From IMG/VR virus record IMGVR_UViG_3300044846_003365, positions 1-64,000 of that record: a DNA stretch of 64,000 nt; one strand, 5' to 3'. This DNA comes from a virus. A model generated the notes under the pieces. The model searched no databases, was not told the DNA's origin, and saw nothing but the letters and a program-made list of their open reading frames with translations. The position numbers and the translations under genes are program-made. This document shows positions 15,512 through 43,546 of this stretch, piece by piece (the first letter of the stretch is position 1; each line of letters starts with the position of its first letter).

Positions 15512-15533
15512 TTTACATCTTCCTACTAACCAA

Positions 15534-15582
15534 AACGGGCGATACGTCTATGTAAATTATACAATGAGACGTACCGCCCGTA
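15534..15582. repeat. long inverted repeat between major tail protein and adaptor genes
   Basis: Two 15-bp arms (around 15534-15548 and 15568-15582) pair at 14 of 15 positions (ACGGGCGATACGTCT with AGACGTACCGCCCGT) around a ~19-base AT-rich loop. On the minus strand only TTTT follows, so it may act as a partial terminator or as a processing or stabilising hairpin for the abundant major tail mRNA. Confidence 0.65.
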
Positions 15583-15595
15583 TCGGATTAGCTAA

Positions 15596-16672: not shown

Positions 16673-16692
16673 TTAGCTATTCTCCTTAGTGG

Positions 16693-17568: not shown

Positions 17569-17604
17569 TTTAAAATCCTTATCTAAATCTTGAACCCCGT
17601 GTCA

Positions 17605-17628
17605 GGGGTGCCTATTGCTAGGCACCCC
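17605..17628. repeat. perfect hairpin between the two capsid genes
   Basis: Perfect 10-bp arms GGGGTGCCTA and TAGGCACCCC surround a TTGC loop in the 78-bp gap between the capsid genes. No T-run follows on the minus strand, so it is not a standard terminator. It could lower or stabilise expression of one capsid gene relative to the other. Confidence 0.75.
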
Positions 17629-17646
17629 CTCAACGAGTGAGTAATT

Positions 17647-19683
17647 TTAGTACTCGATAGCGGCTGCGGTTGCTCCACCAGTGGTGTCGCGAAGTGCTGC
17701 AGCTACACCGTTGACCGAGATGGTCGAGGTAATCTTCAAGGACTCGATGCCAACCTTGGCAACGTTCTCGAAGGTCTCAATGAACATCTTGTAATCGTTG
17801 GTTCCAACCAGTGACGAGTCACGGATGATACCTAGGTCAAGAGTTCCACCATCTAGGAACAAGAATGTTCCCTCGGCAAATAGGAACCAGTCAAAGCTGT
17901 CTGGGAACTCAAGAAGAGCAGCAGTGCCCTGTGAGCCAAAGACAGTCGCGTCTAGAGAGGCTACTAGGTCAACGTTTAGGTTGGCTAGGTAACCGTTAAT
18001 CTCTGCACGAGATACTGATAGGGTTCCATCTCCTGGCATAGCTAGAGCTAGGTCAGCTGCCATAGCGTCGTATACCCAAGCTGGGATGATTGCCTTCAGG
18101 CGAGCCTGAGGGTCAATGCGGTGACGGCTACGGTAAGCAGTTGCTGCACGACGAATCTGGACTAGGAAGTCACGACCAAAACCGATTAGGGAAGTGGATG
18201 TAACAGCTGTCGAACCAGAACCGATGTTGGTCAGCAAGTTCTGCTCTGCCTCACGTGCGTGCTGTACTAGGGCTAGCTCGTTGTGACGGGCAATTAGCTC
18301 TGGGTAAGCACGAGTCATAAGGTTACCGAACTGTAGCTGTAGAGTTACAGCGTCAGTTGACACTGTGTTCTCTGAAGCTGCGGTTACGGTTAGGCTTAGC
18401 TTTGAGGATGGGCTTGGTGTCTCAGCTGAGTCATTTGCAGCAGTCCAGATGCCAACAGCGTTAGCGTAGGAACCAGCAGCAAAGCTCGGTGGGGTCACAA
18501 AGCGGATTCCGCCACGGTCAGCCTGGAAGCGAGGCAATGCATCGCGAACAGGGCGGTCAGTGGTGGAACCGATTCCGAAGATGTCATACTTAACCTCGAA
18601 TGGTGCAGCGTGTCCACCAGAAGCAACAAGTGCTTCCTGACCTACAACTGCATCAATCTTGGCTGAGTTTGCCTCGGCGTCGGTTGATAGAGTGCGCTCC
18701 TCTGGGAACGAGGTGGTTACAGATGCAACAATGTGCTGCTCTCCGTCTCCTCCATTTACACGACGAAGCGAGTGGATGCGCTTTTCCATAGCCGAAGCTA
18801 CTTCGTACATGTTCTTGATTTCTGTGCCAGCTGTATATCCAGGAATGTCGGCTCCAGCGGTAATTGCTACCTTTACTGGCTCCGAAACCTGAATCACAGG
18901 CTGACGGTCAGCTGGAGCTTGGAAGCTCTCTTCTGCTGCGGCGGTCACGGTTGCCTGCTCTTCCTGCGCCTCTGGCGCGGTTGGGGTTTCTTCAATTGTT
19001 GACTCTTCTGCTTCAGCTGCGACTTCTTCTTGCTCTTCGCTAGCATCTGCAACGACTGGCTCTTCAGCCACAGGCTCCTCAACAGCAGGAGCTTCAGTCT
19101 CAACCTCAACGGCTGGAACTTCTTCTTCTGTAGCTGGAGCGTCTTCAGTAACTTCTTCATCAGTTGAAGCTTCCTGAACAGTCTCGGTTTCAACAGCTAG
19201 TACTTCTTCAGTACTCTCTGCACTTTCTTCGGTTGAAAATTCGGAAATTTCCTCCGTAGCAATCGACGCGTCAACGGTCTCAGACTCGAATTTCTTCTTG
19301 TCTTCCTCGTCTTCTTTTTCTTCAGTCATAGCAGCCTCAGGTTTTTCCTCAGGCTCACCCTCTTCTGGCATTTCCTCTTCCGCTGGAACTTCTTCCATTG
19401 GAGTGTCCTCACCATCAGTGACCTCTTCGCCCTCACCCTTAACACGCATGGTTGCCTCAGCAGCTCGCGTAGCAAGCTCCTCAGCAGCAGCCTCGCGGTT
19501 CTGGACTTCGCTTTTAACGGTGTCCAGCATGTCAGCAAGTGACGTCATAGCGTCAACCGTTTCCGGAGTAGGTTCCTCAGATTCGACCTTTTCAAATTCG
19601 CTAACGATATCTGCCTGAAGCTGAGCAACTTGCTCGTCGCTCAAGTCAGCCAGAGTATCTACCTGCGACTTAATTTGGTCCAC
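17647..19683 (-). CDS. major capsid protein with N-terminal acidic scaffold region
   Basis: I place the start at GTG 19683, five bases after AGGAG, giving 678 residues; an ATG 45 bp upstream lacks a site. Residues 1-~95 are helical (TLADLSDEQVAQLQADIV). Residues ~95-270 are extremely rich in Glu, Ala, Pro and Thr, as expected of a fused scaffolding (delta-like) domain removed by the prohead protease. The rest (from about residue 310) is the HK97-fold shell domain, with long helices (LMTRAYPELIARHNELALVQHAREAEQNL) and GRDFLVQIRRAATAYR. The protease lies directly upstream. It should build the main lattice. Confidence 0.85.
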   Translation of the reverse strand: MDQIKSQVDTLADLSDEQVAQLQADIVSEFEKVESEEPTPETVDAMTSLADMLDTVKSEVQNREAAAEELATRAAEATMRVKGEGEEVTDGEDTPMEEVPAEEEMPEEGEPEEKPEAAMTEEKEDEEDKKKFESETVDASIATEEISEFSTEESAESTEEVLAVETETVQEASTDEEVTEDAPATEEEVPAVEVETEAPAVEEPVAEEPVVADASEEQEEVAAEAEESTIEETPTAPEAQEEQATVTAAAEESFQAPADRQPVIQVSEPVKVAITAGADIPGYTAGTEIKNMYEVASAMEKRIHSLRRVNGGDGEQHIVASVTTSFPEERTLSTDAEANSAKIDAVVGQEALVASGGHAAPFEVKYDIFGIGSTTDRPVRDALPRFQADRGGIRFVTPPSFAAGSYANAVGIWTAANDSAETPSPSSKLSLTVTAASENTVSTDAVTLQLQFGNLMTRAYPELIARHNELALVQHAREAEQNLLTNIGSGSTAVTSTSLIGFGRDFLVQIRRAATAYRSRHRIDPQARLKAIIPAWVYDAMAADLALAMPGDGTLSVSRAEINGYLANLNVDLVASLDATVFGSQGTAALLEFPDSFDWFLFAEGTFLFLDGGTLDLGIIRDSSLVGTNDYKMFIETFENVAKVGIESLKITSTISVNGVAAALRDTTGGATAAAIEY

Positions 19684-19756
19684 TGTTTCTCCTAACGGGA
19701 CAGTTGTGTGGCGGTAGTTCCACCACATGCTGTGTCGGTATAAGGCAAAGGGACTG

Positions 19757-19772
19757 CACGCATAGAAGCGTG
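19757..19772. repeat. 5'-leader hairpin of the major capsid gene
   Basis: Arms CACGC and GCGTG with a six-base loop lie 74 bp before the capsid start. Flanking bases extend the pairing weakly. It may be a leader stem of the capsid mRNA. Confidence 0.4.
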
Positions 19773-19824
19773 AGGCACTCCACCTATGAACTATTTTACA
19801 ATAGTTTTTTTGTGTTTATTATTA

Positions 19825-24575: not shown

Positions 24576-25247
24576 TTAACCGTTTGATGTGTAGCTAAGG
24601 GCTTCTTCTACACTCATAGATGCATTTCTATCGTAGGTGTCTAAAAAGTCTTTAGCTCTTTCTAGGCTCAGTTCGGCAACAAATAAGTCTTCGTATTTTT
24701 CGTCAGACATGTCAGCCTTGGACCAGCCAGACTCCTGCCTAAAGTATGTGCCAGCTGAAGTCATGTAGATTACTTCCGTAATCATTCCAACATCTTCTCT
24801 ATAGTAAACAACCATACTCTCAAAGAAAGGCAAGAATCCCCCCTGAGGCACGCTAGAGCCAAGCTGTTGCTCAATAACAGGGCGAGACTCTAGGCTGACT
24901 TTAGACTCTAAAACCTCTACAGGCACTGGGACTTTGTACTTAGAAATCCAAGAACCGTCTTCTGAAACAAGCTTACGAATTAAGTAAACGTTAGTGTCGT
25001 CCTGAAATACGAGCTTGGTGGCAAACTCTCCAGCTGAGGCAACCTGAGACTTATCTAAGTCAAAGTACCTAATTCCGTTGCTGGAAGTTAGAACATAAGT
25101 CCCCTTACCTTCTTGGCTGTTGTCGTAGTAGACACCAATAATAGTTTCGTCAGACTCTTGAGCTCCAGACACAGAAAGTACGCCTAGAGTAGGAAACATA
25201 ATTTCTACTGACTCGTCAGTTATCCTAAAGTTTTCTTTCTTGGGCAT
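24576..25247 (-). CDS. hypothetical protein of the head operon
   Basis: A 223-residue soluble protein of unknown function, alternating strands and turns (IIGVYYDNSQEGKGTYVL) with a C-terminal helix ERAKDFLDTYDRNASM. It begins 4 bp after the 2772-residue gene ends and precedes the protease gene, so it is almost certainly co-translated with them. A head or internal virion role is inferred from position only. Confidence 0.6.
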   Translation of the reverse strand: MPKKENFRITDESVEIMFPTLGVLSVSGAQESDETIIGVYYDNSQEGKGTYVLTSSNGIRYFDLDKSQVASAGEFATKLVFQDDTNVYLIRKLVSEDGSWISKYKVPVPVEVLESKVSLESRPVIEQQLGSSVPQGGFLPFFESMVVYYREDVGMITEVIYMTSAGTYFRQESGWSKADMSDEKYEDLFVAELSLERAKDFLDTYDRNASMSVEEALSYTSNG

Positions 25248-25251: not shown

Positions 25252-28200
25252 TTACCTAACCGTATCCATCAATATTTGCTTTATTTCTTCCATTGTGTTG
25301 AGGTTGGCGTCATAATAAGAAGCCCTCTCAATACCATTTGCATCCTTATAAGCCATCTTATACAAGACAGAGCCGTCTGGCATAGTGACAGACTCTATGT
25401 AGCCAGCAGAAGAAGCCTTTAGCTCATCGCTAGTCTTGCCTTGAGCGCCTAGGTAGGCCACGCCGTCTGAACCTTCTTGCCACTTAAGTTGCTGAGGCTT
25501 CTTACCAGATACTGGCTTTTGTACAGCGTTACCTAATGAATCTACTGGTAGCGGAGCACTTCCGTCTGAGCGAGCCAAGACCTCTAGGTTCTTAGTAGTG
25601 ATTCTTCTAGAACCTCCACTAGTACCTGGGAATCTAACGTAGACGACATCTTCGTAAGAGTAAGTTCCACTATCTCTTTGATAGCTAATTCTTGTTCTCT
25701 TTGTGACGTATCCAACCTTAGTCACACCGTTGAAAGTGTGCCTAACCTTGTCTCCAACTCTAACAATGGTGTTTCCATCGCGGGATGGGTAAGGAACCAT
25801 GTTTGCGCCCGGAGCTTCTCGGTTTGCAACTATTCTCTCTACTACATCGTCTAGCTGAGAGCCTCTTAAAGCTGGGTTGTCTCTAAAGTTCTTAATTAGA
25901 TTGTCAATAAATTCTTGTCTAGCAGAACCTTCTGGCATCATGCTCATTTGGTTAGCAATGTTCTCAATCAGAGCGTCAACAACACCGTTACCAGTCTTTG
26001 GAATACCAGTGTCGCCGATAAACTCTGTGGAGTCACGTCCTTCAACGAACCTATTTGGTAGTAGCTGTCCAGTAGCTGGGTCAGTAGCTTCTGACTCTTT
26101 GTCAGAGGAGTTGTTGAACCAGTTGTTTGGGTTGGTTCCGTTAATTCCACGTCCACTAGTGTTTCCGTTTAGTAGAGCCCTTACCCTAGAAACTGTAACC
26201 TCTGGTGAGTGAGACTTGTCAGTAAATCTACCAACGCTAACGTCTCCTACTTGTTTGCCTTCGGCATCAATCTGGTACTGACGTACATAAGCAACAAAGT
26301 CATCATTAGGAGTCTTGTGAAGAACAACCTCGTACCTGAATACTCTGTTGTCACCTCTAGTCCTGCCTTGGAAGTCTCTGCTAGCAACAAGAATGTCACC
26401 ATTAGGTAGAACTTGGTGGCCCTCGAACGCCTGCTTAACAGCGTTAAGAACAATCTGGGGCTGGCCTAGGTTGGCTATCAATCTAGGAGAGTCAACAATT
26501 CTTGGGGCAACATCTTCAACCTGAGCTGGAACTTCTGGCTCAGGTGGGGTAGTAGTAGTTGGGGCTGGAGCAGTTCCCTCTTCTTGGTTTACAAACTCTG
26601 AAGCTCTTCTTAGAGCTTCTTCTTCAGTTTCGTAAACTTCAGTAGCAGTCGGGTCCAAACTTCTGTCAAAGCCAACTAAGTCATACTTTCCGTTTTCACT
26701 GTCAAAAGTAATGGTGACCATAGAGTGAGGGATTCCGTCTTCCTCTTCCGAGTGCTCTACTTGAATAGAGTCTTCTTCAGGTCTACGAATTACCAAGAAG
26801 CCTTCTGGCATTCCTAGAGCCTGAGCCTCGTCTAATCTTTCTCTCTGAACCTGAGAAACAAATGGCCTGTCTTCTCCAAGCTTCGGAACACCGTAGTACT
26901 CAAGCATCCCATCTCTACGGTACTTGAGCGTGTCTAGGGTTCTCTGCCTGTCAACGTCATCTCTAATAATGCTAACTAGCTGTTCTAGAATCTCGTCAGT
27001 TAGTGGAGCAACAACTTCGCTAACATAGCGCTTCATGTCTTCGCTATCTCTGTCAAAGATGTCGTTCTGACCAGATACGCTGTCGTAGTTAGGGAATGGT
27101 AGGGCGTAAGGTCCACCTTCAGCAGTCCTCTTAGAAATATTTAGAATTTCTTCCATAGAAGCTGACTCTGTAAATCCAGCTCCGTAGGCTTCTCTTCTTC
27201 CAGAAGGTGTGTAGAACATAGCTGAGCCATTGTCTACTCTGTAGACATTTCCATCTCCGCCAACAACCATGTTGTCTGAGTTGAAGTAAGCATCAAAATT
27301 GTTCATCAAAAGGTCTAGGGCTATGCCCTTTCTGAAGGCATCAATTCTTGCTTGGTCTCCAGACTCCATAGCGTCAGCAATGTGAGAAATAATGTTTTCT
27401 TGAGAGCGGAATATGAAAGGCGAAGCTAAGTAATTTTCATCACCGTCAATGGTAGCTCTCCTAATTTCGGAGGCATTAATTCCCATAGTTCTGTAGACAG
27501 CTGAAGCAAAAATTTCCATGTCAACTTGTCTAGAGAAGTCGTCTCCAAACATAGTGTGGGCAGCTCTCTTAACAACCCAGAAATTGCCTTCAGAGTCTCT
27601 GTAAACTCTGACGGGGTTAGAAGCTTCTGTCACCCCCATAGACTCATTTGAAGCAAGAGTATATGAATCGTCTAGTACCAAAGGCTCAGAGTTTGCAATC
27701 GACACAGCTTGACCAACCCTGCCTTCAGCTTCGTTTACTGGAGCTTCTGGCTCAGGCTTAGCTTCTTCTAGTTCTGTGGTCAAAACTTGCTCTGGGTTGT
27801 CCAGTAGTAAGTTATTCTTTAGCCAGTTTCTAGAAAAATCTAGAGCTTCGGCGTAGCTATCAAACTCTGAACTTTCTCTGAAAGAGTCAGCTCTGTCTCT
27901 AGAAAAAACAGCGTATTTGCCTTCTTCAAATCCGTAGTTAATTTGGATTTCTTGGCCTGATGGCATTGACATTCCAGCAATAAATTCATTCTGTTCAAAG
28001 TTAGCTGGGCCACTTGGCATGTTGCGAGACGTGTAGGCAAGTTCTCCACCTCTAGGGGTGACTATTCTTCCGCTCTGTACTTTCAATTCATTTGAAGTAA
28101 AGCTAAGACCATCTGGCGTAGCCACTGCTCTAGGTAGCTCATCTAGGCTTCTAATAGGCTCGTTAGTGATTGGGTTAACTGTAGCACCGTTAGCTATGCC

Positions 28201-31200
28201 AAGAAGCTCGCCGACAGCTCTGACTGCATCTTCTTCATTATTGAACCTAGCTCCAAAGTTATCCGCCCCTTCTGGCAACTTTGAGGTGTTAATGCTGTGA
28301 GTCAGTCTATAAACTTGAGCACTAGTTAAGACATCGGTTTCTCTGTCTATTCTAGCTACGCTACTTATGTCTTGAGACCTAACAATGGAAAAAACATCTC
28401 CCCTAGTAGAGTTAGCTGTTCTTCGGATAAAGAATCTTTCACCGTTTATTCCGAGCTGGACTTCTGTAACTTGCGTAGCAGAGGTGTTTACTAGGTCTGG
28501 AGTCGAAAGTTGGATTACAGGGGCACCAGAGTTAACAATTTGACTTCTGTCTATTTCAGCAATTAGATTTCCAGTTCCAGCAGACCTACGCTGAGCTTCC
28601 TGCTCCAACATAATTAAGGCAATGTTTTTGTCGCTAACAGTTGCGATTGACCGAAGTCTGTCCAGTCCACGGGCGGTTGCTGGCCAAAATACTGGAGTAG
28701 CATCTTCTTCATTAGACACAGCCAATGTATAAGTGCCGTTATCATTTTCGATGACTCTACCAATTATTGTTCCAGATTCTGAGTCAGTAGGGCTAATTGT
28801 TCCTATAAGAGCAATTGTTCCGTTACTATCTTTATCTTCATAAGTAATTACAGCAAGGTCAGACCTATTGCCACTAGGGAAAGAGTAATCTCTTCTAGTT
28901 GCAGCGCCAAGACCTGATTCAGACTTAAGGGTTGCTGGCTCTGGAAGGTCTTCAAGTGTCCAAGCTTGTCCATAATTAGATGCTATAGAAGCGTTAAGAA
29001 GAGCATCTACATTTTCTCCCTGCATTTGGAGGGCATCTCTTAGGGCTGCGTGGCCAATCTGTATCTCTTTACCGTCTTGGTATCTAAGGGTTAGAGTCTC
29101 GCCAACCGCCGCTGGGAATACGGCTCTTGTATAAGCTTTTCTAAGAGTGCTAGTAGAAAAGTTTCTAGCAATAACTCTTGGGTCATCTGAAGCTTCTCCG
29201 TTTCTCCACTGTTCTTCTGTAACAGTAGGAACGTGCTTTTCATTCAAAACTGTTACTAGAGTTGGACTACCGTTACGTCTTATGCCTCTAGGCCTAAGTT
29301 CAGTAGTTGGAGCAATTCGGGCGGTAATGTCTCTAGGGTTGACATCCTCTTCTTGAATTCTACTAGCGCCACCAGCGGTAGCAACTCTAGAAACAGAACC
29401 AAAGTCTCCACCTATTTCTCTCGGAGCTGGAGGAATCTCTGCTTCAACTTCTCTATAAATCTTTTCAATATCTTTAGAGATACCGCTTAAGCCATCTGGA
29501 CTCTGCTGTAGGTCAAAAACATCTAGCTTTATCGGGGTGACATCTTCTAGTGGCCTTACTTCTCTTCTAGAAACTTTGTCAGCGTCAGTAAACTCTTCGG
29601 AATCAATCTTGTCAATTAGCCTAGTTAGGTTGTCGACCAAGTGAGCAGAAGCATCATCCATAACACCTTGTCTAAATCCAACAGTTTGTGGAAAAGGAGT
29701 GTTGCCAGCTTCTTGAATAGAGTCACGGATAGTTTTTAGCTTTGTTAGGGCTTGTTCCTTGCTAATTCCGCCCTCAAAGGACATTTCCTTAATTACTTCT
29801 AAAATATCAAAGTCAGGGTTAAGAGCTGTGGTCTTGCTTTTTAGGAAGTTTGCATAGACAGAAGGAACAGGTACTTGGTCTTTAGCGCTTGGATTTGTTT
29901 TGAATCCATTTCTAAAAAGCTCAGCGTGTTGTCTTAGCAGACCGTTTAGGTGCCAAACCGGTCCTTCTTGGCCAAAGCTGTCTGAAACACCAAGTGGCTT
30001 GTAAAAAGATTCAAAGCTTCTAACGGTGCTACTAAAGATATCTCTAATTAGTCTCTTAGATTGGTCAACAGGGCCGTCTTGAGTTTTGACCCAGCCTATT
30101 TCCTTCCACCATTCAACAACCTTGGAGTTTTTTACGTGAAGAAGCTTCTCTACCTGACTTGGGTGGTGCAGAGCTGGGTCGTGACCGTTTACAGCCTTAG
30201 AGCTTCTGTTTCCGTCAACTAGAAGGTGAAGGCTATGCTGGAATTTACGTCCTGCTCCCTCAATTGCATACTGAGAAGCAAGAGCCATAATTCCTCCAAG
30301 ACCGTCCCCCTTAGCCTTGCTGTCATTAACAGTTACATAAGCTGTTGTGACAGGCTTTTTGTTTTTACCGTATCTAGTCTCATAAAAAATCTTTGCGACG
30401 CTTCTATTGGTAGTCTCGTCAAAGTGCCACTTTCCATTTCTGTCACCAAAGTTTTGGAATCCTACAGACGGACCTCTTTTACCGTCTGGACCTATTCTGT
30501 ATACGTTAAGGATTCTGCCTTGGTAGGCCCACTCCATTTCATAAGCGGTTCCGCTCTTACCAACAAAAATAGCTCTGAAGTTTCTAATTACCTCTGTGTT
30601 TTTGTCTTGAGTGTCGCCTGGGCCTCTAACAATAGAACTTTCAATAATCTTTAGATTTCTAACCCTGTTATCAATGCCACCAAAAATGTCAGCCTTGTCG
30701 CCTCTGAGTTTGATGTCAGCTAGGAGGTCTGTAACGCGACCTGCGTAAATTCTAGCTAGTAGGTACTGTCTATTAAACTGCTCGACATTGTTGGCCTGTC
30801 TAGCATTTGACATACCGAGAATTGCAGAGTTCTTTCCGCCAATCAAAACTTTTAGAAGTCTAGCTTGGGACTCAGTTAAATTTTCGTAATCAATGTTTTC
30901 TGGGGTTCTAAGACCATCAAAAATGTTAGAATCTATGTTTTCAGGAATCTCTATGTCCTGAACAATCTCGGCTTTAGAGAGAGACGAAGGTTCTACGTCT
31001 AAAGCGTCTTGTTTATTCTTTGTAAAGTTTCTTACGCCAATAAGTCTTGACGCAAGGCTTCCTAAGTTTTCTTCTTCTTCAGAATCTTCTGGCGCACCGA
31101 GCTTGTCTCGTAGTGCTCCAATTTTTTCTACTAAAGAGCGGATTCCTCGCATGACAAGGTTTCCATCTTTTTGCTCTACAGCCGAGTCAATTTCGGAAGT

Positions 31201-33570
31201 AGCTTCAACAATGTCAGACTTATCTTCAGAAATGTCTACATCTGGACTTCCTAGTACGGAGACGTAATCTCTTACTTCTCCAACAACTTCAGTAGTTTGC
31301 TCTCCTAATTCGTCAGTAAAATCTACTGACTCTTCGGGATGCTCTTCACTAAGTTGTCGTAAATTCGACCCGTCAGTTCTGTTCTCTGGTCCTCCGAGAG
31401 GTTCTCCCAGTTCTTTAGTTCTAGGTCCATCACTACTCTGCTCTCCTGAGAGTCTGGACTCTTCTCTTTGCCTTCTTGCTCTGCCACGGTCTCCTGTACC
31501 TCCTGTGTCGATGTAACCTCTGAATTCAATTCCAAAGATTCCTTGCTGGTTGTTTTCCCTACCCCAAGCCATAGCTCGTTCTAGTTCTGTTTCACTATTC
31601 TCGTCGAAAATCTTAGAAATGTCAAGTGTGACTTCTCTGTTGTCCTTGTCGTGCCAAAGACCTAGCTTGTTTCCAGAGTTAAATTCCCTGTAATTCCTAG
31701 CTATAAAGTCATTTAGGGCCAGTTTTCCAAGCTCTCTGTCGAAGAAAGCCGTGTCCACTAGCTCTTCGTTTAGCCCACGCAAACCTACGGCAATTCCAGT
31801 CTTTAGCGGGGTTCCAGAGTCAGCCTCAACTGTGCCACCCTCTTCTTTAGAGACTCTCTCAATTAGGTCTTGAGGCTCGCCTACAACTTCTGGCCCAACA
31901 GCAGGGGTATTAGTCTTGGCGTTTTCAACGTCCTGCTTTAGAACGTTGCTTAGACGTCCGTAGAGGTCGTTTTTGTCGCCCTTGGACTTGTCAATTAGGT
32001 CACCAAAGTATTCAATGGAGTCAGCAATACGGCGTGCCTGCTCGGAGCCTTCTCCCCTTGTGGCGTTCCTTAGCTCAGACTCTTCAGTTCCTAGAGCTTC
32101 TGCTAGTTCTTTGTAAACTCCGTCCCTGTCATTACCGCCTTGGGCATCTGGAGTGGTATCTCCATCGCTTGGGGGAACGTTGTAACCCTCAAGGTCTGAA
32201 CGTAGTTTCTCAAACTTAGCCCAAGCTTGGCGCTGGACTGGTCTAGGTAGGTCTACAGACCAAGAAGTGGCTAGGTCGTCTTCAGCATTTCTCCAACCAG
32301 CGCTGTTCTCACGTAGCCAATCAAGAATCTCTGGACCTGGAACGCCTTCATCAATCTTTCTAGCAACGTCGCCCTGCTCGTTGTCGTACCACTGCAACTC
32401 ACTCTTAAGTCTTTCACGCTCGTCAATAGCGTCCTGCTTTGAGGTGTCAGGTAGGGAAGCTTCGTACTCTTTACGCTTAGCTTCGAACTCTTCATCTAGC
32501 TTTGCTAGTCGAGCGTCAACGTCTTCTAGTTGCCCAGGGCTGCCACCAAATCTTCTAATCCTGCTTGCAACCATGTCAAGCTCTGCACGACGTCCAGCAA
32601 TTTCATTTAGCTGGCGTGCTAGTTCTACTGAATCTGCTGTTGCAACGCTTGGGGCAGGCTTTACTCCGTCTCTAATGTCGTCGCTTATAGGAACGACTTC
32701 AGGACTCTTTGGTCTTAGTTCTTCTGGAGTTGCTTTTCTAGGGGCTTCGGCTTCTGGTATCTCTGGACGGATGGTTTCGCCAATTTCAAATTTAGGAATT
32801 ACTTTGACTTTGGCGTTATCCGAGTAAACCTTGCGAGTACCATCTGTAAAAGTAGCAATCGGCCCTGAGTCTGAGCTAAAGATGCTCTGAATTTCTTTTT
32901 CTTCACCAGTTGGAAGAATTACGGTGTCGCCAGGCTTTAGGTCTCTAGCTGTAACTTCTTTAGTTCTGCCTAGAGCTTCTTGAAGAAGTGTGTAGCCCTC
33001 TCCTAGGTCTTCTTTGGTGGCCTCAGTCTCGGCAACAACGTTAGTGCTCTCGTAGCGTGGGGCAGTAGCACGCTTAAACTTAATAGAAGCTTTTTGCTCT
33101 GGGGAAAGCTTGCCTTCTGCAAGCTCTCTGTCAAGGTCGGTGATTTCATTTCTCTTAATAGCAGAGATGTCTTCAATGTCAGTATCAATGACTTCGCCAA
33201 TTGGGTTTCCGTTGACGTCGTGTCCAGCCTTAGTAACGCCAGCCTGACGTAGGGCACTTCTAGAAAGCTTGGCCAGAACCTGCTGACCAGATTTCATGTT
33301 TACTTCAACAACGTTGTTGCCAAAGTCTGGGTCGTTTTCCATGAGGATAAGACCATAACCGGGCCTATTTGGGACAGCACCAACGAATCTACCTGTAGCT
33401 GTTTTTACATTTCCGCCAGACTTAAACTTAAAGCTAAAGTCACGGCCCATCTCGACCCAACGGCCAAATCTATCTCTAAGCTGGGTGGCAACATTTGCCC
33501 GACGCTCAGCCGAAGTATAAGCTGCTACTAATGGAGATAGTGGCTGGGTTTCGTCGATAGGGTCGAACAT
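25252..33570 (-). CDS. giant polyvalent head-operon protein (2772 residues) with kinase-like and possible acetyltransferase-like domains
   Basis: The largest gene of the window, starting at ATG 33570 after TAGGAG. The N-terminus carries small beta-barrels (GRFVGAVPNRPGYGLILMEN; LKPGDTVILPTGEEKEI), then charged coiled coils (about 320-480). Around 590-700 lies a domain with NKLGLWHDKDNREVTLDISK (W639). Around 1000-1150 a segment with KAKGDGLGGIMALASQ (near 1087-1100) resembles the acetyl-CoA loop of a GNAT fold, weakly. Residues ~1985-2130 look like a HipA/PI3K-type kinase: K2001, E2019, NNFDAYFNSDNMVV (D2093, N2100) and RVDNG (D2113). Further beta-domains follow. Placed between portal-side genes and the protease, it is probably packaged and injected. 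Enzymatic activity is inferred. Confidence 0.75.
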   Translation of the reverse strand: MFDPIDETQPLSPLVAAYTSAERRANVATQLRDRFGRWVEMGRDFSFKFKSGGNVKTATGRFVGAVPNRPGYGLILMENDPDFGNNVVEVNMKSGQQVLAKLSRSALRQAGVTKAGHDVNGNPIGEVIDTDIEDISAIKRNEITDLDRELAEGKLSPEQKASIKFKRATAPRYESTNVVAETEATKEDLGEGYTLLQEALGRTKEVTARDLKPGDTVILPTGEEKEIQSIFSSDSGPIATFTDGTRKVYSDNAKVKVIPKFEIGETIRPEIPEAEAPRKATPEELRPKSPEVVPISDDIRDGVKPAPSVATADSVELARQLNEIAGRRAELDMVASRIRRFGGSPGQLEDVDARLAKLDEEFEAKRKEYEASLPDTSKQDAIDERERLKSELQWYDNEQGDVARKIDEGVPGPEILDWLRENSAGWRNAEDDLATSWSVDLPRPVQRQAWAKFEKLRSDLEGYNVPPSDGDTTPDAQGGNDRDGVYKELAEALGTEESELRNATRGEGSEQARRIADSIEYFGDLIDKSKGDKNDLYGRLSNVLKQDVENAKTNTPAVGPEVVGEPQDLIERVSKEEGGTVEADSGTPLKTGIAVGLRGLNEELVDTAFFDRELGKLALNDFIARNYREFNSGNKLGLWHDKDNREVTLDISKIFDENSETELERAMAWGRENNQQGIFGIEFRGYIDTGGTGDRGRARRQREESRLSGEQSSDGPRTKELGEPLGGPENRTDGSNLRQLSEEHPEESVDFTDELGEQTTEVVGEVRDYVSVLGSPDVDISEDKSDIVEATSEIDSAVEQKDGNLVMRGIRSLVEKIGALRDKLGAPEDSEEEENLGSLASRLIGVRNFTKNKQDALDVEPSSLSKAEIVQDIEIPENIDSNIFDGLRTPENIDYENLTESQARLLKVLIGGKNSAILGMSNARQANNVEQFNRQYLLARIYAGRVTDLLADIKLRGDKADIFGGIDNRVRNLKIIESSIVRGPGDTQDKNTEVIRNFRAIFVGKSGTAYEMEWAYQGRILNVYRIGPDGKRGPSVGFQNFGDRNGKWHFDETTNRSVAKIFYETRYGKNKKPVTTAYVTVNDSKAKGDGLGGIMALASQYAIEGAGRKFQHSLHLLVDGNRSSKAVNGHDPALHHPSQVEKLLHVKNSKVVEWWKEIGWVKTQDGPVDQSKRLIRDIFSSTVRSFESFYKPLGVSDSFGQEGPVWHLNGLLRQHAELFRNGFKTNPSAKDQVPVPSVYANFLKSKTTALNPDFDILEVIKEMSFEGGISKEQALTKLKTIRDSIQEAGNTPFPQTVGFRQGVMDDASAHLVDNLTRLIDKIDSEEFTDADKVSRREVRPLEDVTPIKLDVFDLQQSPDGLSGISKDIEKIYREVEAEIPPAPREIGGDFGSVSRVATAGGASRIQEEDVNPRDITARIAPTTELRPRGIRRNGSPTLVTVLNEKHVPTVTEEQWRNGEASDDPRVIARNFSTSTLRKAYTRAVFPAAVGETLTLRYQDGKEIQIGHAALRDALQMQGENVDALLNASIASNYGQAWTLEDLPEPATLKSESGLGAATRRDYSFPSGNRSDLAVITYEDKDSNGTIALIGTISPTDSESGTIIGRVIENDNGTYTLAVSNEEDATPVFWPATARGLDRLRSIATVSDKNIALIMLEQEAQRRSAGTGNLIAEIDRSQIVNSGAPVIQLSTPDLVNTSATQVTEVQLGINGERFFIRRTANSTRGDVFSIVRSQDISSVARIDRETDVLTSAQVYRLTHSINTSKLPEGADNFGARFNNEEDAVRAVGELLGIANGATVNPITNEPIRSLDELPRAVATPDGLSFTSNELKVQSGRIVTPRGGELAYTSRNMPSGPANFEQNEFIAGMSMPSGQEIQINYGFEEGKYAVFSRDRADSFRESSEFDSYAEALDFSRNWLKNNLLLDNPEQVLTTELEEAKPEPEAPVNEAEGRVGQAVSIANSEPLVLDDSYTLASNESMGVTEASNPVRVYRDSEGNFWVVKRAAHTMFGDDFSRQVDMEIFASAVYRTMGINASEIRRATIDGDENYLASPFIFRSQENIISHIADAMESGDQARIDAFRKGIALDLLMNNFDAYFNSDNMVVGGDGNVYRVDNGSAMFYTPSGRREAYGAGFTESASMEEILNISKRTAEGGPYALPFPNYDSVSGQNDIFDRDSEDMKRYVSEVVAPLTDEILEQLVSIIRDDVDRQRTLDTLKYRRDGMLEYYGVPKLGEDRPFVSQVQRERLDEAQALGMPEGFLVIRRPEEDSIQVEHSEEEDGIPHSMVTITFDSENGKYDLVGFDRSLDPTATEVYETEEEALRRASEFVNQEEGTAPAPTTTTPPEPEVPAQVEDVAPRIVDSPRLIANLGQPQIVLNAVKQAFEGHQVLPNGDILVASRDFQGRTRGDNRVFRYEVVLHKTPNDDFVAYVRQYQIDAEGKQVGDVSVGRFTDKSHSPEVTVSRVRALLNGNTSGRGINGTNPNNWFNNSSDKESEATDPATGQLLPNRFVEGRDSTEFIGDTGIPKTGNGVVDALIENIANQMSMMPEGSARQEFIDNLIKNFRDNPALRGSQLDDVVERIVANREAPGANMVPYPSRDGNTIVRVGDKVRHTFNGVTKVGYVTKRTRISYQRDSGTYSYEDVVYVRFPGTSGGSRRITTKNLEVLARSDGSAPLPVDSLGNAVQKPVSGKKPQQLKWQEGSDGVAYLGAQGKTSDELKASSAGYIESVTMPDGSVLYKMAYKDANGIERASYYDANLNTMEEIKQILMDTVR

Positions 33571-33584
33571 TAAAACGTCTCCTA

Positions 33585-33643: not shown

Positions 33644-34195
33644 TTAGATAAGGTCTAAAAGCGTTTCAACGGGCTTTTGAGTTTTGATAGAAGAAAGTCG
33701 CTGACCGACATAAGCTCTTTCAACAGAACCTTCTTCAGTTTTTAGTGCAGAGGCAATCATTGGACGTAGCTCTTCTGGAATTCTTGGGTCAGAAGAGCGC
33801 CACTCAATAGAAGCAAGTAGAACTTCTTCTTCTGAGTGCTCGTCGTTCTTAGTACTGAGTGGGTGGCCTAGTGGCAAATACTTAGCGTTATCTTCATTGA
33901 TTTTAAAGTCCTCGCCAAAAATGGCAACGTTAACAAAATCGTTTAGTTCTTTAAAAGCAAGTAGCTTTTGGTATTCCTTATCAGCAAAGATGTTCTTAAG
34001 AATGGCGCTCTCAACAATTGTGTAAGCCGTGACTGGGTCAACGGACCTAATCTCAGATACGCCCCTATTAGCAGAGGCAATTAGCTCGGAAATAGCCTTA
34101 CCAAAGTCTAGTTCGTTGTTGTTAAATAGAGGATTTTCTACAAGCTCGTTAATTTCTGAAGCGTAGCTGTCTTCCTCGTGTGATACCTGCTCCAT
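33644..34195 (-). CDS. hypothetical protein of the head operon
   Basis: A 183-residue acidic, mainly helical protein that I do not recognise. It has helices such as DFGKAISELIASANRGVSEI and EYQKLLAFKELNDFVNVAIF. It lies between dps and the 2772-residue gene. An Asp/Glu-rich N-terminus and lack of membrane segments suggest a soluble head-associated or scaffolding-like protein, but nothing diagnostic is visible. Confidence 0.6.
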   Translation of the reverse strand: MEQVSHEEDSYASEINELVENPLFNNNELDFGKAISELIASANRGVSEIRSVDPVTAYTIVESAILKNIFADKEYQKLLAFKELNDFVNVAIFGEDFKINEDNAKYLPLGHPLSTKNDEHSEEEVLLASIEWRSSDPRIPEELRPMIASALKTEEGSVERAYVGQRLSSIKTQKPVETLLDLI

Positions 34196-34223: not shown

Positions 34224-34730
34224 TTAGTAGTCTGACATGTACTCTGAAGCCATCTCGTTTAAAGAGATTTCAGAAATAGAAGTCTTGTCAGCGCCAATGA
34301 TGGTGCCCAACTGCCAGTGGTACTTAGTGTGCACATCTACACGTCCAGCTAGGAAGTCTGCAACGCCCTGCTCATTAAGTTCGCTAGCCATAGCAAAAGC
34401 TTCTAGTAGGCAACGAACCAAATTAGCATTTAGGTTGTAAAGCTCACGGCTCTGGTCAATGGGGTCAGATGACGTAGGGTTTGGCTCCATAGAAGCCATA
34501 GAAACGTAGTCAGACAATGTAACTGGTGCATCGAAGCCAAGCTTGCGAATGTTCTCGCCTAGTGGGTCGATAGCTGATTCTGCATCTTCGTATAGCTCGC
34601 CAAAGAAGTCGTGGAACTGAATAAACTGTGGTCCCTTGACATTCCAATGGAAGCCCTGTGAAGCAAACTTGTAAGTTACAAGGTCGCTAAGAATTACAGA
34701 AAGCTTAGAAGCTAGCATTTCCTTGCTCAT
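34224..34730 (-). CDS. dps: Dps-like ferritin
   Basis: A 168-residue Dps family protein of normal length. The ferroxidase residues are present with family spacing: H28 in GFHWNVKG, H40 in FHDFFGELY, then D55 and E59. Dps dodecamers oxidise and store iron and protect DNA from hydroxyl radicals. The ATG overlaps the portal stop (TAATG), so the gene is coupled to portal translation and expressed late with the virion genes. Dps genes are found in some phages, but location inside a head operon is unusual. It may act in the infected cell or be packaged with DNA. The family call is confident; the purpose is inferred. Confidence 0.9.
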   Translation of the reverse strand: MSKEMLASKLSVILSDLVTYKFASQGFHWNVKGPQFIQFHDFFGELYEDAESAIDPLGENIRKLGFDAPVTLSDYVSMASMEPNPTSSDPIDQSRELYNLNANLVRCLLEAFAMASELNEQGVADFLAGRVDVHTKYHWQLGTIIGADKTSISEISLNEMASEYMSDY

Positions 34731-36517
34731 TATTGGTTTTCTCCTGTTTCGGTTGGTTGCTCTGGCTCAGCTAACTGCGGAGCTTCCTCTTGAGCTGGTT
34801 GTGGTTGTGGTTCTGCTGGTGTTTCTTCGGTAGGAGCTTCGGGATTCAAAGTCTCCTCCAAATTCTCTGGGATTGGCGCAACGCTTTGGGCTTGGTTGGC
34901 CTTTCTTATCTTCTGCATAATGTCTGGAGCTAGGCTCTCGATTATCTGTGCAGTAAGTTCTGGGGTAACGGCACCCTTCTCGAAGACTAGACGTAGCGCA
35001 ACTTCAGTTGGAGTCGGAGCTTCGTTCTCTGAGAATCCGTGAGCACGTCTCCAAGTCTCGTAGCTAATTGCCATCTTCTCGAAACCTGAGTCTGCATCTG
35101 CTGCACGGTCATTACGAGTAGCAACCTGAGATGGGTCGTACCAAACAACAATGTTGTCAACTTCTGCGTCAGTGAATCCATTTGCAAGTAGGTAAGGACG
35201 TAGGTAAACAACTGTAAGAGCGTCGGCGATAAGTAGCATCAGAGGCTCAATGTGCGCCTTGTAGAGGCTCTCGTCAATTTGAAGTGCGTTGGAGTACTTA
35301 ACGTTTGCTAGACCTGTAACGATGTCCTTAGGGACGTCGAGACCCTGCATGATGCGCTCAAGAACTCGGTCTGAACGCTCAGCAAGTGCTGGGTCGAATG
35401 AACGCTCAAACTTGAACTGCTTAATCTTGTCACCAAGCTCAGCAGGTCCACGAATGATAAGTGGAACAACGGCAGACGCTGAGTCTTCATCCTTGATAGG
35501 AGTAGTCATAGCGTCGATGAGCTGGTCCTCGAAAGCGTCTTCTAGCTCTTCTGGAGTTGGCTCGTCGTAGATACCGTCTGGGTCATCGTAAGGATAGGCG
35601 CTGTCTGGTGTAGCTGCAACAGACAAACCATCTGGCAAGTAAAGAGCACCAGCGTTCAAGCGTGAACGTGCAGTGCCACGGAAAGTTCTGTTTAGAAGTA
35701 GAAGTTCAGCGCAAAGGTCAAGTATGCCCTTCATGCTCGAATCGGACTCGTCAGTGAAGCGTGGGTGTGACTTCCAAATACGTCCAACAAATGCATCCTT
35801 AGGAAGCATAATTGAACCCTTTTTGCTAGTTCCACCAGCAGAAACTCCAGACTTCAAATCTCTACGTGGAGTAAGAATGTAGTTACCCTTTTGGTCAGCA
35901 ACAATTTCGTCAACGGAGCGAATGTCCCAGCTCTCTGGGGTGCCGTGACCAACGCGTGCTGGAGTCTGTGCTAGGTAGCACTCACCAGTAACCTGAATGT
36001 TTAGAGCAGCGTCTCTAAGAAGACCTGCCTGACCTCCGTAAGCGGAGTCAAGACGTTTGATTGCACGCTCAGCTGCTTGAATTAGTCGAGCCTGACTTTC
36101 GTCTTCAACGTTCTTAGCTGGTACTGGAGCTTCAGCAGGATTAATGACAACTGCTGGGTAAAGTTTGATTCTGGAAACAACGGAAGCAACTAAGTTGAAA
36201 GCGTATTTGATTTCACCAATGGCGTCATAGTATTCCCAAGCTTCAGACTGCCACATAGAAGAAACTGAAGAACGTCGCTCTCTAAACATCTGAGCTTCTG
36301 AGCGGTCTCCAACTTTTAGCTGTACAGCCGATGCTGTTAGAGCACGTGGGGAATTAAAAGCTACAGCCTGTGCCTGCTGGGGAGCAGAAAGAAACACGTC
36401 AGACGGAACCTGAAGGCTAGAGCCAACGATTCTTTGGTTGGTGGCACTGGCGCGGATACCGCTAGCGTCTCCAGAACGTCTGCGAGCTGGGTTTGGCTGT
36501 TTTTTGAAAATTCCCAT
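34730..36517 (-). CDS. portal protein
   Basis: A 595-residue protein starting at ATG 36517. The N-terminal ~70 residues are basic and disordered. The core (WQSEAWEYYDAIGEIKYAFN, then SYGGQAGLLRDAALNIQVTG and LLLNRTFRGTARSRLNAGAL) and the segment FDPALAERSDRVLERIMQGL followed by LPK-like DVPKDIVTGLANVKYSNALQ fit actinophage portals. The C-terminus is Pro/Glu/Gln-rich and low complexity. It should form the dodecameric channel at one capsid vertex on which the terminase docks. It sits at the start of the head operon. Confidence 0.85.
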   Translation of the reverse strand: MGIFKKQPNPARRRSGDASGIRASATNQRIVGSSLQVPSDVFLSAPQQAQAVAFNSPRALTASAVQLKVGDRSEAQMFRERRSSVSSMWQSEAWEYYDAIGEIKYAFNLVASVVSRIKLYPAVVINPAEAPVPAKNVEDESQARLIQAAERAIKRLDSAYGGQAGLLRDAALNIQVTGECYLAQTPARVGHGTPESWDIRSVDEIVADQKGNYILTPRRDLKSGVSAGGTSKKGSIMLPKDAFVGRIWKSHPRFTDESDSSMKGILDLCAELLLLNRTFRGTARSRLNAGALYLPDGLSVAATPDSAYPYDDPDGIYDEPTPEELEDAFEDQLIDAMTTPIKDEDSASAVVPLIIRGPAELGDKIKQFKFERSFDPALAERSDRVLERIMQGLDVPKDIVTGLANVKYSNALQIDESLYKAHIEPLMLLIADALTVVYLRPYLLANGFTDAEVDNIVVWYDPSQVATRNDRAADADSGFEKMAISYETWRRAHGFSENEAPTPTEVALRLVFEKGAVTPELTAQIIESLAPDIMQKIRKANQAQSVAPIPENLEETLNPEAPTEETPAEPQPQPAQEEAPQLAEPEQPTETGENQ

Positions 36518-38967: not shown

Positions 38968-39474
38968 GTGAACCAGCCTAACGACCCAAGACTAGCGTCT
39001 GTGAACCAGCCGTATCATAAACCCTTAGCTACTTGGTCAGAGGTCTTGCCTAATCTATGGCAGGGAGGCACAGAGGACGACGACATCTACCTTCAACACG
39101 ACCAGCCAACTATTACTAAAGATAACTTTGATTCGGTATACACCTTGTATGGTTGGGCGAACCCAGTTGGTTGGTTTGTGAAAGAAACTCGGCTAGGTTT
39201 CCACGACAGCGACAGCCTAACTGTCCACCCTAAACAACTCTACGACTTAGCCAGCCAAGCACACAGGGATTGGAAAGAAGACAAGCGTGTCTTGATTAGG
39301 TGTCAGGCAGGTCTGAATAGGTCAGCCTTGATAACAGCTTTAGTCCTAATCAAGGAAGGCTTTACCGCAAGCCAAGCTATAACTTTGCTTAGGGAAACTA
39401 GAAGCGAGTATGTCCTAATCAACCCTCACTTTGAAAAGTGGTTGCTAGAAACAGAACACTTTAGCGAACTCTAA
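38968..39474 (+). CDS. tyrosine/dual-specificity phosphatase-like protein
   Basis: 168 residues from a GTG start after GAAAGAGAGAA. The active-site P-loop is clear: LIRCQAGLNRSALI, with C112 and R118 in the C-x5-R-S signature. D80 or D82 in FHDSDSLTVHP is the likely general acid, and helices follow as in cysteine-based phosphatases. It would remove phosphate from protein Tyr/Ser/Thr or another phosphoester; the substrate is unknown. The tail of the gene overlaps the oppositely oriented terminase gene by 14 bp. A 22-bp dispersed site replaces an obvious promoter upstream. Confidence 0.8.
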   Translation: MNQPNDPRLASVNQPYHKPLATWSEVLPNLWQGGTEDDDIYLQHDQPTITKDNFDSVYTLYGWANPVGWFVKETRLGFHDSDSLTVHPKQLYDLASQAHRDWKEDKRVLIRCQAGLNRSALITALVLIKEGFTASQAITLLRETRSEYVLINPHFEKWLLETEHFSEL

Positions 39475-40858
39475 AGAACCCAGTTCCCCTAGTGTCTGGC
39501 AATCTCCTAGAAGCCAAAGACTTAGCCTTTATGCTACCGCCCACAAAACCAGCGGGGGGTTTGATTAGTAAGGCGGTAAGAGCGTGAACCAAAGCATCTA
39601 CTCTGTCAGGCGACTTACCCTCACCCGGAACCCAGCTAAACATCTGAGACTCTAGGTCAGACAAGTAGCCTATGTGGTGAACTCTACCTTGCTCATACGC
39701 AAGGGTAGTGGGCTCAGCCCTCAAAGCTTTACCATACTTAGAGTGAACTTCGAGAACCTTTATGTTTGGGTCAATGGCGTTGATAGCATTACGAACCAAA
39801 GCCCCACCTTGGTTTACTTCGGCAACAACAGGGCAACCCCACTTACGAGCCATAGCTACAACTTTGTTTGCCCACACATCAGGCGAACCTAAAACAGAAG
39901 CATCTTCTAAAACCCAAGCTTGACGCTTATACAAATCTCTATCCGCAGTAGAAGCACACACCACAATCCCACACTCATCTCTAGGATTCTCGGCTACTGA
40001 AGGGTCTACTCCAATTATTCTTAGTGGAGCTTTAGGAGGCATAGAGTGTTCCCTATGTTGCTCAATCAACTCCTCAGTCCACAAAGCCCCCTCAACATCA
40101 TCAAGCATCTCACCATAAAGTTCTTGTTGAGCTAAGCGTGTTCCTTCATAAACTCCAGTAATAGCATCTAGATAAGCAGAAGATAAGTTTCCAGAGTTGT
40201 CCATAGTTGAACCACGGGACACCCACACCTTGCCAGTTCGCTTAGCCTCATCTAGAAGCGAGTAAAGGATAGGCACACGCTTAGGAGTAGTAGTGGCTAG
40301 AATCTGGGGATTACGACCTAGACGAGTTGCCACACGAAGGTTGTCCCAAGAGGTCATACCAGCAGCATCTGGGTTCTGTCTCCAAGCTGCCAGCTCATCA
40401 GCCCAAGAGTAGTGGGCTTGAACACCACGAAGGGAGTCTGGCTCATCAGCAGTTCCAAGAACAGCGGTATTGCCATTAGGCCAGGTCAGCCTACGCTTGG
40501 AAGGCTCATACAAAGGTCTCTCACTTGGAGGCGACACAGCCAAGATACCACTATCACCTTCGACAATAACATCTCGCACATCTGCTGCAGTTCGAGCTAC
40601 GAGCAAGAACCGCAAGCGACCTTGGCTTGAATCCAATGCTTTAGTTCTAACCCACTCCGCAGCACTCCTAGTCTTACCAGCACCACGACCAGCCAAGAAC
40701 AACCCAACATTCCAAGAGTCATTAGCAGGCGGAATCTGTTCAGGTCTTCCCCAGAAGCTCCAGTCCCAAATCAAAGACTCAGGGTCCATACCAGCTAGGA
40801 CAGCTAAGCGTTCTTCATCTGGGAGTTCCGCAACTATCTGAGCCAGGCTCTTCGGCAT
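39461..40858 (-). CDS. terminase large subunit
   Basis: A 465-residue packaging motor and nuclease. Walker A is GRGAGKT (57-63), Walker B is SWADE (D154, E155), and a coupling-motif-like LATTTPK follows at about 187-193. The RNase H-like nuclease has acidic residues D285 (IIGVDPS), E347 (VVAEVN) and D421 (SPDRVDAL). The start is ATG 40858 after AAGGATTCAG. It is not adjacent to portal or to the small-terminase candidate at 62391-63302. It lies beside the plus-strand phosphatase gene in a tail-to-tail overlap. Confidence 0.93.
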   Translation of the reverse strand: MPKSLAQIVAELPDEERLAVLAGMDPESLIWDWSFWGRPEQIPPANDSWNVGLFLAGRGAGKTRSAAEWVRTKALDSSQGRLRFLLVARTAADVRDVIVEGDSGILAVSPPSERPLYEPSKRRLTWPNGNTAVLGTADEPDSLRGVQAHYSWADELAAWRQNPDAAGMTSWDNLRVATRLGRNPQILATTTPKRVPILYSLLDEAKRTGKVWVSRGSTMDNSGNLSSAYLDAITGVYEGTRLAQQELYGEMLDDVEGALWTEELIEQHREHSMPPKAPLRIIGVDPSVAENPRDECGIVVCASTADRDLYKRQAWVLEDASVLGSPDVWANKVVAMARKWGCPVVAEVNQGGALVRNAINAIDPNIKVLEVHSKYGKALRAEPTTLAYEQGRVHHIGYLSDLESQMFSWVPGEGKSPDRVDALVHALTALLIKPPAGFVGGSIKAKSLASRRLPDTRGTGFFRVR

Positions 40859-43486: not shown

Positions 43487-43517
43487 TTCTAACTCCTCTC
43501 TTTTCGTCATTATTTCT

Positions 43518-43546
43518 ATTCTACAACGCAAAGAAAGTTTTGTCAA
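43518..43546 (-). promoter_or_regulatory. sigma70-type promoter of the deacetylase-like gene
   Basis: Minus strand TTGACA (43541-43546), 17 bp, TAGAAT (43518-43523). Confidence 0.8.

What the first reader, a model, noticed from the sequence alone, without database searches (positions are those of the whole stretch)
25252..33570. 2772-residue head-operon protein contains a HipA/PI3K-like kinase domain
Residues ~1985-2130 keep an orderly set of kinase residues: K2001, E2019, D2093 with N2100 in the catalytic loop, and D2113 in the DNG metal site. Other regions look like a GNAT fold and several small beta-domains. A giant multi-domain protein in the head operon suggests internal virion effectors injected with DNA that modify host targets.
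Basis: partly seen in the sequence, partly recalled or inferred. Interest (0 to 1): 0.7.

Follow-up and report, generated by a model that had tools for sequence, protein, structure and literature searches.

The report
Kinase inside giant phage head-region protein
A bacterial virus carries, beside its capsid genes, a very large protein with a genuine protein-kinase-like domain; related kinases sit in giant proteins of many other phages, and one is annotated as part of the virus particle, so this kinase is probably carried in the particle and released into the host cell.

Summary
The 2772-residue ORF is real (25252-33570, minus strand), and residues about 1967-2230 form a HipA/CtkA/CotH-type kinase domain. 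A profile built without the window finds it at E 3e-35. Its AlphaFold2 model (pLDDT 79.5, pTM 0.80) matches CtkA (Z 16.6), CotH (14.0), HipA (11.7) and PI3-kinases (about 9). K2001, D2093, N2100 and D2113 are kept in 52 of 52 homologs, E2019 in 51. The gene lies between portal and head-protease/capsid genes.

The kinase is an uncatalogued, widespread phage family: at least 313 relatives in IMG/VR contigs, mostly in giant proteins. Many sit next to a portal gene; some are fused to ADP-ribosyltransferase or the head protein MuF. In Yersinia phage fHe-Yen8-01 the kinase protein is annotated "phage particle associated protein". An RDxxG[RK][FWY] motif occurs near the N-terminus of the giant and in the head-protease protein, rarely elsewhere.

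Best reading: a modular ("polyvalent"-type) virion protein whose kinase is delivered to the host with the DNA. Virion location of the window's own protein, ejection, activity and substrate are unproven. The GNAT claim is unresolved. New variant of a known kind.

The parts
25252..33570 (-). Giant modular protein, 2772 aa (P0001)
   Evidence: ORF and translation; ribosome-binding site AGGAG at 33579-33583
26842..27672 (-). HipA/CtkA/CotH-type kinase domain (residues about 1967-2243)
   Evidence: profile A2 match E 1e-57 (window is in A2); leave-window-out HMM 3e-35; AF2 model and PDB matches
33445..33513 (-). N-terminal RDxxG[RK][FWY] motif stretch (residues 20-42)
   Evidence: motif scan
33145..33543 (-). 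N-terminal shared module (residues about 10-142), also in giants without kinase (Microbacterium phages Pumpernickel gp82, A3Wally gp85)
   Evidence: tblastn; local phmmer; no kinase there
29866..30708 (-).
   Evidence: AF2 pLDDT 37; no PDB acetyltransferase
28936..29253 (-). Small module (residues about 1440-1545) recurring, often twice, in related giants, in several of them just before the kinase
   Evidence: HMM search; kinase positions
25504..26457 (-). C-terminal modules (residues about 2372-2689) shared with giants of L091, L092 and in part L065, L094
19825..24507 (-). Head maturation protease fusion, 1560 aa, carrying the same motif twice (residues 352 and 1401)
   Evidence: PHROG 18402 1.3e-56 and Pfam Peptidase_S78 7.9e-4 (below cut-off); motif
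17647..19728 (-). Major head protein
   Evidence: phrog_777 6.5e-86
34730..36517 (-). Portal protein
   Evidence: phrog_776 2e-102
34224..34730 (-). Ferritin/Dps-like protein
   Evidence: Pfam Ferritin 3.5e-15; phrog_3636 1.2e-21
33644..34195 (-). 183-aa protein just upstream of the giant, unknown
   Evidence: no convincing family
24576..25247 (-). 223-aa protein just downstream of the giant, unknown
   Evidence: no Pfam family; phrog_7243 0.036 only
39461..40858 (-). Terminase large subunit
   Evidence: phrog_979 2e-21

Best explanation
The ORF is a modular head-operon ('polyvalent'-type) protein of a tailed phage. A conserved N-terminal end, including an RDxxG[RK][FWY] motif shared with the head-protease protein, probably helps to bring it into or onto the prohead. 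One of its payloads is an active-site-complete HipA/CtkA/CotH-type kinase. After the DNA is delivered, the kinase would phosphorylate a host target, most likely a protein. Shown here: ORF, kinase fold (predicted), conserved catalytic residues, head-operon context, broad phage family, module sharing, MuF and ART fusions in relatives. Inferred: packaging of this protein, ejection, catalysis, substrate, and the role of the motif.
For: Fold and catalytic residues. Head operon in the window. In relatives, upstream ORFs include portal phrog_776 in 16 of 87 ORFs from 46 loci; downstream ORFs include head maturation protease phrog_18402 in 8 of 78 and major head proteins phrog_10 in 4 and phrog_2263 in 3 of 78. 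Particle annotation of the Yersinia phage fHe-Yen8-01 homolog, with further neighbours annotated 'particle associated'; its kinase domain scores 2.7e-78 and its C-terminal ART 7.2e-8. Pfam on 18 of the 80 giants: ADPrib_exo_Tox 7, NUDIX 3, Phage_Mu_F 2. Motif: 39 of 89 kinase ORFs (35 of the 39 within the first 230 aa), 18 of 33 protease-family ORFs, 4 of 780 other ORFs (0.9 in shuffles).
Against: No proteomics for this phage. The window kinase departs from 13 of 36 columns conserved in at least 85% of relatives, including the Gly-loop glycine (A1983) and the R-A-x-G-x-x-K stretch (T2121, P2122, E2127), so substrate or activity may have changed. No second catalytic domain was identified in the window protein (Pfam and PHROG 0 families), so 'polyvalent' rests on relatives. 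In a non-redundant set the motif is in only 18 of 51 kinase ORFs, and the five named gammaproteobacterial phage proteins scanned for it lack it; the Yersinia protein was not scanned for it. Several relatives lie away from portal and capsid genes (for example) or before the terminase. Late expression is also compatible with an assembly or immunity role.
Confidence: 0.6

Rival explanations
1. Late-expressed assembly kinase: it acts on scaffold, capsid or Dps proteins during head assembly and is not an effector for the next host.
For: Gene lies among late head genes; a Dps-like gene family (phrog_3636) occurs in 11 of 87 upstream ORFs of relatives; the giant shares a motif with the protease.
Against: Relatives combine the kinase with ADP-ribosyltransferase and NUDIX domains, typical of host-directed effectors; giants without kinase share the N-terminal module and head location, so assembly does not generally need the kinase.
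Confidence: 0.15
2. Immunity kinase: made late, it protects the infected cell from other phages, as Benler et al. 2021 proposed for the HipA-family kinase between portal and capsid genes of Gratiaviridae.
For: Same gene position, and a Dps in both (passages of PMC8008677).
Against: Giant multidomain form, MuF fusions and particle annotation of a homolog fit virion delivery better. Whether the Gratiaviridae kinase is of this family was not tested.
Confidence: 0.1
3. Lipid or small-molecule kinase of the PI3/PI4-kinase type rather than a protein kinase.
For: PI3K-type chains are matched at Z about 9; PF00454 scores 1.2e-3 in 1 of 18 giants.
Against: The best structural matches are CtkA, CotH and HipA, clearly above PI3K; these are protein kinases (recalled).
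Confidence: 0.1
4. Pseudokinase or binding module: fold kept, catalysis lost.
For: Divergent glycine loop and RAxGxxK stretch in the window.
Against: Lys, Glu, catalytic Asp, Asn and metal Asp all kept.
Confidence: 0.05

Closest known systems
Polyvalent proteins of phages and conjugative elements (Iyer et al. 2017, PMC5512222; passages read)
   Same: Very large modular proteins encoded beside virion genes, often with ART, NUDIX, GNAT or MuF modules, predicted to be packaged and injected.
   Different: Their kinase group is described as a Ser/Thr/Tyr-type kinase that lost the C-terminal subdomain, with a His/Asp active site, mainly in (pro)phages of Verrucomicrobia-Chlamydia and Bacteroidetes. 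Here the kinase is HipA/CtkA-like with an NxD loop and C-terminal helices; the main text has 0 occurrences of 'HipA'.
HipA-family kinase of Gratiaviridae gut phages (Benler et al. 2021, PMC8008677; passages read)
   Same: HipA-like kinase encoded between portal and capsid genes; Dps also present in these phages.
   Different: Reported as a kinase-containing protein next to an ATPase and a glycosyltransferase in five phages, interpreted as immunity. Relation to the present family not tested.
CtkA of Helicobacter pylori (PDB 3akj, 3akk, 3akl)
   Same: Closest solved fold: Z 16.6 over 233 residues; the NxD and DxG stretches align in the profile match at E 0.005 with A1.
   Different: 11% identity; a stand-alone cellular protein (recalled). 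With the larger alignment A2 the sequence match drops to E 0.6.
CotH (PDB 5jda) and HipA (PDB 3tpv)
   Same: Fold at Z 14.0 and 11.7.
   Different: No significant sequence match in the window protein; no HipB-like partner identified next to it.
MuF-fused effectors of (pro)phages
   Same: In bacterial genomes the kinase is fused to MuF and/or ART in single ORFs.
   Different: The window giant has no detectable MuF domain.

Membership tests
HipA/CtkA/CotH-type kinase fold | Two-lobed kinase-like fold | tested here: met
   AF2 model pLDDT 79.5, pTM 0.80; CtkA Z 16.6, CotH 14.0, HipA 11.7
HipA/CtkA/CotH-type kinase fold | Lys/Glu pair, catalytic Asp and Asn, metal-binding Asp | tested here: met
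   K2001 52 of 52, E2019 51 of 52, D2093, N2100, D2113 52 of 52. One search pattern contained D2086, N2091 and D2093, so their conservation is partly built in; K2001, E2019, N2100 and D2113 lie outside both patterns
HipA toxin family (Pfam HipA_C) | Sequence match to HipA_C or HipA_2 in the window protein | tested here: not met
   0 families for the window domain at E up to 10; HipA_C in 2 of 10 aligned members, best 3.3e-5
HipA toxin family (HipBA) | Adjacent HipB-like antitoxin | tested here: inconclusive
   Neighbours 33644-34195 and 24576-25247 have no helix-turn-helix family hit in Pfam but are unknown proteins
Polyvalent proteins | Encoded beside virion structural genes | tested here: met
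Polyvalent proteins | Two or more distinct effector domains in one polypeptide | tested here: inconclusive
   Only the kinase is identified in the window protein; relatives carry kinase plus ART, NUDIX or MuF
Polyvalent proteins | Packaged in the virion and injected | not testable with these tools
   Homolog annotated as particle associated; nothing for the window phage
Polyvalent-protein kinase group of Iyer et al. 2017 | Loss of the C-terminal subdomain and His/Asp active site | tested here: not met
   Model has helices up to about residue 2225 after the active site and the loop reads NFD; compared with the text description only, no sequences compared
   pLDDT 37; no PDB acetyltransferase
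MuF-fused effectors | MuF domain in the same protein | tested here: not met
   Pfam 0 families for P0001

The most novel reading that the evidence does not exclude
Tailed phages run a modular virion-delivery system: a short N-terminal sorting tag (RDxxG[RK][FWY] plus the following module), shared with the head maturation protease, loads giant proteins with interchangeable payloads into the prohead, and an uncatalogued HipA/CtkA-like kinase family is a common payload that rewires the host by phosphorylation from the first minutes of infection.
Probability: 0.35. Interest if true: 0.78.

Novelty: new variant of a known kind. Interest (0 to 1): 0.62.

Why it matters
Very few phage protein kinases have a known role. 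If this family is carried in virions and acts at once on entry, host takeover by phosphorylation would be common among phages of Actinobacteria and Gammaproteobacteria, and it is directly testable in cultured phages (Gordonia GodonK and Sixama, Pseudomonas putida Dolphis). The shared motif would give a simple sequence handle for finding other packaged effectors.

Tried and rejected
Whole-protein searches gave nothing: Pfam and PHROG 0 families; phmmer against PDB only chance hits, best E 0.11; the search for related loci with the whole protein or the kinase alone found no contig; megablast against phages no match. The relatives came only through tblastn with the kinase piece and then through alignments.

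GNAT test: only L090/L091 (the same contig) and L092 share the region, so the alignment has 3 sequences and the model is useless. No fold search was made with it. The PDB profile search gave only two chains, zinc-finger matches by chance.

NCBIfam on 52 kinase domains: 12 families, each in a single member, best 2.3e-4, unrelated names; judged chance.

I considered an ADP-ribosyltransferase in the window giant: none found. ART searched in 19 records (17 viral contigs and 2 phages, of the 31 loci that the N-terminal module had brought in): 1 of 19. Kinase in the same 19 records: 3 of 19, so the N-terminal module is not tied to the kinase.

Motif counts: four of the 39 motif-bearing kinase ORFs (L052, L057, L059, L062, evidently one protein, motif at residue 768 in each) have it internally, probably by chance. 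Counts include near-identical contigs; the non-redundant count is 18 of 51. Loci L091-L119 were left out of the counts because they were found partly through the motif itself.

Papers: no held paper on fHe-Yen8-01; 0 papers for HipA + phage + polyvalent + head; 0 for phage-encoded + HipA + kinase domain + ADP-ribosyltransferase + capsid; 'HipA-like kinase' + phage + virion gave only PMC8008677; CtkA + phage gave Helicobacter papers and one on Streptococcus in the listing. The library lacks most subscription papers and bioRxiv, and supplements could not be read. Haloarchaeal tailed viruses HHTV-1 and HSTV-2 have structural matches to the model (E 6e-6 and 1.3e-4); the one listing seen for them was not followed further.

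Full report
What was checked. The ORF 25252-33570 lies on the minus strand, starts with ATG and codes for 2772 residues, with AGGAG upstream and 8 bases between it and the ATG. The window is part of a 79,718-base IMG/VR virus record. The whole protein matches no Pfam or PHROG family and nothing convincing in the PDB.

Is the kinase more than chance? tblastn with 264 residues around the motif hit 25 phage records at E up to 10; the best are Actinomycetia phage DSL-LC01 (8e-9), Enterobacter phage phiT5282EW (3e-5), Morganella phage Mecenats66 and Aeromonas phage ST4 (both 1e-4). An alignment of ten (A1) then found at least 600 matching stretches in viral contigs (limit reached), 313 of them confirmed relatives, 80 kept. 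Of 79 usable domains, 51 non-redundant ones plus the window make A2. In A2, K2001, D2086, N2091, D2093, N2100, R2111, D2113 and G2115 are kept in 52 of 52 and E2019 in 51 of 52. Because one search pattern contained the DxxxxNxD stretch, conservation of D2086, N2091 and D2093 is partly built in; K2001, E2019, N2100, R2111 and D2113 are not in the patterns. A profile of the 51 others scores the window ORF at 3e-35, against 0.46 for the best of 50 shuffles and 0.3 for the next best frame of the window.

Fold. AlphaFold2 on A2 gave mean pLDDT 79.5 and pTM 0.80, with much of the core above 90. Foldseek lists PRPK, CtkA, PI3-kinases and RIO kinases (best E 3.8e-5; CtkA 6.4e-5). VIA-align 2 ranks CtkA Z 16.6 (rmsd 3.5, 233 aligned), CotH 14.0, HipA 11.7, PRPK 10.4 and VPS34 9.2. 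So 'HipA/PI3K-like' is right, and CtkA is the nearest solved fold. Among viral predicted structures the best hits are mostly phage proteins of 770-1480 residues, including one called 'portal protein', Gordonia phages Sixama and GodonK, and Mycobacterium phage Onyinye. Weak sequence links agree: CtkA E 0.005 with A1, but only 0.6 with A2; HipA_C in 2 of 10 members.

Divergence of the window copy. Of 36 columns conserved in at least 85% of the others, the window keeps 23, including all catalytic ones, and changes 13, among them the Gly-loop glycine (A1983) and the R-A-x-G-x-x-K stretch (T2121, P2122, E2127). The glycine's conservation in the others is partly built in by the second search pattern. 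This could mean a changed substrate or, less likely, lost activity.

Surroundings. In the window the order, in the direction of transcription, is terminase (39461-40858), portal (34730-36517), Dps-like (34224-34730), an unknown 183-aa protein, the giant, an unknown 223-aa protein, the protease fusion (19825-24507), major head protein (17647-19728), then connector and tail genes. In relatives, the two nearest upstream ORFs of at least 150 aa (87 ORFs, from 46 of 51 loci) include portal phrog_776 16 times and the Dps-type family phrog_3636 11 times. From downstream, 78 of the 113 listed ORFs were scanned (at most two per locus; a few very long ones left out): protease-type phrog_18402 8, major head phrog_10 4 and phrog_2263 3. 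The 80 kinase ORFs themselves run from 264 to 5922 residues, some cut by contig ends.

Other domains. Pfam on 18 of the 80 kinase ORFs: ADPrib_exo_Tox in 7, NUDIX 3, Phage_Mu_F 2, and single cases of LPD38 (a 'large polyvalent protein' domain), ART-PolyVal, UvrD helicase and exonuclease. Six of nine named phage proteins matched by the kinase also match ADPrib_exo_Tox (ST4 only at 0.013, below cut-off), in their C-terminal parts. In bacterial genomes, 32 loci carry the kinase. MuF is a head protein (passages of PMC5512222).

Virion evidence. Yersinia phage fHe-Yen8-01 gene 129 (2146 aa) holds the kinase (E 2.7e-78) and a C-terminal ADP-ribosyltransferase (7.2e-8). Its record says 'phage particle associated protein', and genes 130, 131, 133, 134 and 135 nearby are also given as particle associated. 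In a Yersinia-phage paper the same term means proteins identified by LC-MS/MS (passages of PMC8309999). That the deposit used the same criterion is my inference; no paper on this phage was found.

A shared motif. RDxxG[RK][FWY] (scanned as [RK]DxxG[RK][FWY]) occurs at residue 32 of the giant and at residues 352 and 1401 of the protease, and in no other ORF of at least 60 aa in the window. Across the loci it is in 39 of 89 kinase ORFs (35 of the 39 within the first 230 residues), 18 of 33 protease-family ORFs and 4 of 780 others, where shuffling gives 0.9. Without near-duplicates it is 18 of 51 kinase ORFs. The N-terminal module around it (residues about 10-142) also begins giants of Microbacterium phages Pumpernickel and A3Wally, each between portal and a large downstream gene, which have no kinase. 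A sorting or processing tag is the simplest reading; nothing here proves it, and five named gammaproteobacterial phage proteins lack it.

Mechanism. Best supported is a packaged, modular protein that delivers a kinase, with other domains in relatives, to the host at infection. Shown: predicted fold, conserved catalytic residues, context, fusions, sharing of modules. Inferred: presence in this phage's virion, ejection, activity, substrate. Rivals: assembly kinase, immunity kinase, lipid kinase, pseudokinase. A precedent for many packaged and ejected head proteins with protease maturation is phage SPN3US (start of abstracts in the listing).

Relation to the known. Polyvalent proteins are a known class (PMC5512222, passages). 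Their described kinase is another, truncated type, and the main text has no 'HipA'. A HipA-family kinase between portal and capsid genes is known from five Gratiaviridae phages and was read as immunity (PMC8008677, passages). I found no description of this HipA/CtkA-like kinase as a module of head-operon giants in the searches; the library is partial. Hence new variant of a known kind.

The GNAT claim stays open.

Noticed in passing
window 42506-43546 (-): A histone-deacetylase/acetylpolyamine-amidohydrolase-like enzyme (phmmer to HDAC6 chains E 5e-33), unusual in a phage.
   Followed up: partly
window 38968-39474 (+): Dual-specificity-phosphatase-like protein with a CX5R motif beside the terminase on the opposite strand (PDB E 6.5e-4); the phage would carry both a kinase and a phosphatase.
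   Followed up: partly
window 34224-34730 (-): Ferritin/Dps-like gene between portal and giant; the family is also in 11 of 87 upstream ORFs of kinase relatives, so the pairing looks conserved.
   Followed up: partly
L091:2755-9525 and 9965-23149; L092 likewise: Two neighbouring giant ORFs (about 2256 and 4394 aa), each with its own kinase domain.
   Followed up: no
L064:2-15922 and L080:2-15916: ORFs of about 5305 aa with two kinase domains each; L044 has a second weaker one.
   Followed up: no
L123:3-8717 (Streptomyces sp. NBC_01340 linear plasmid): 2904-aa open frame with the kinase at its C-terminal end; no annotation listed for the stretch, possibly a prophage.
   Followed up: no
HHTV-1 R4T6E8 and HSTV-2 L7TJZ0 (viral structure library): Haloarchaeal tailed viruses have proteins matching the kinase model (E 6e-6 and 1.3e-4).
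   Followed up: no
window 41629-42144 (-): Looks like a peptidoglycan-binding-type domain protein near the terminase (by eye, no search).
   Followed up: no
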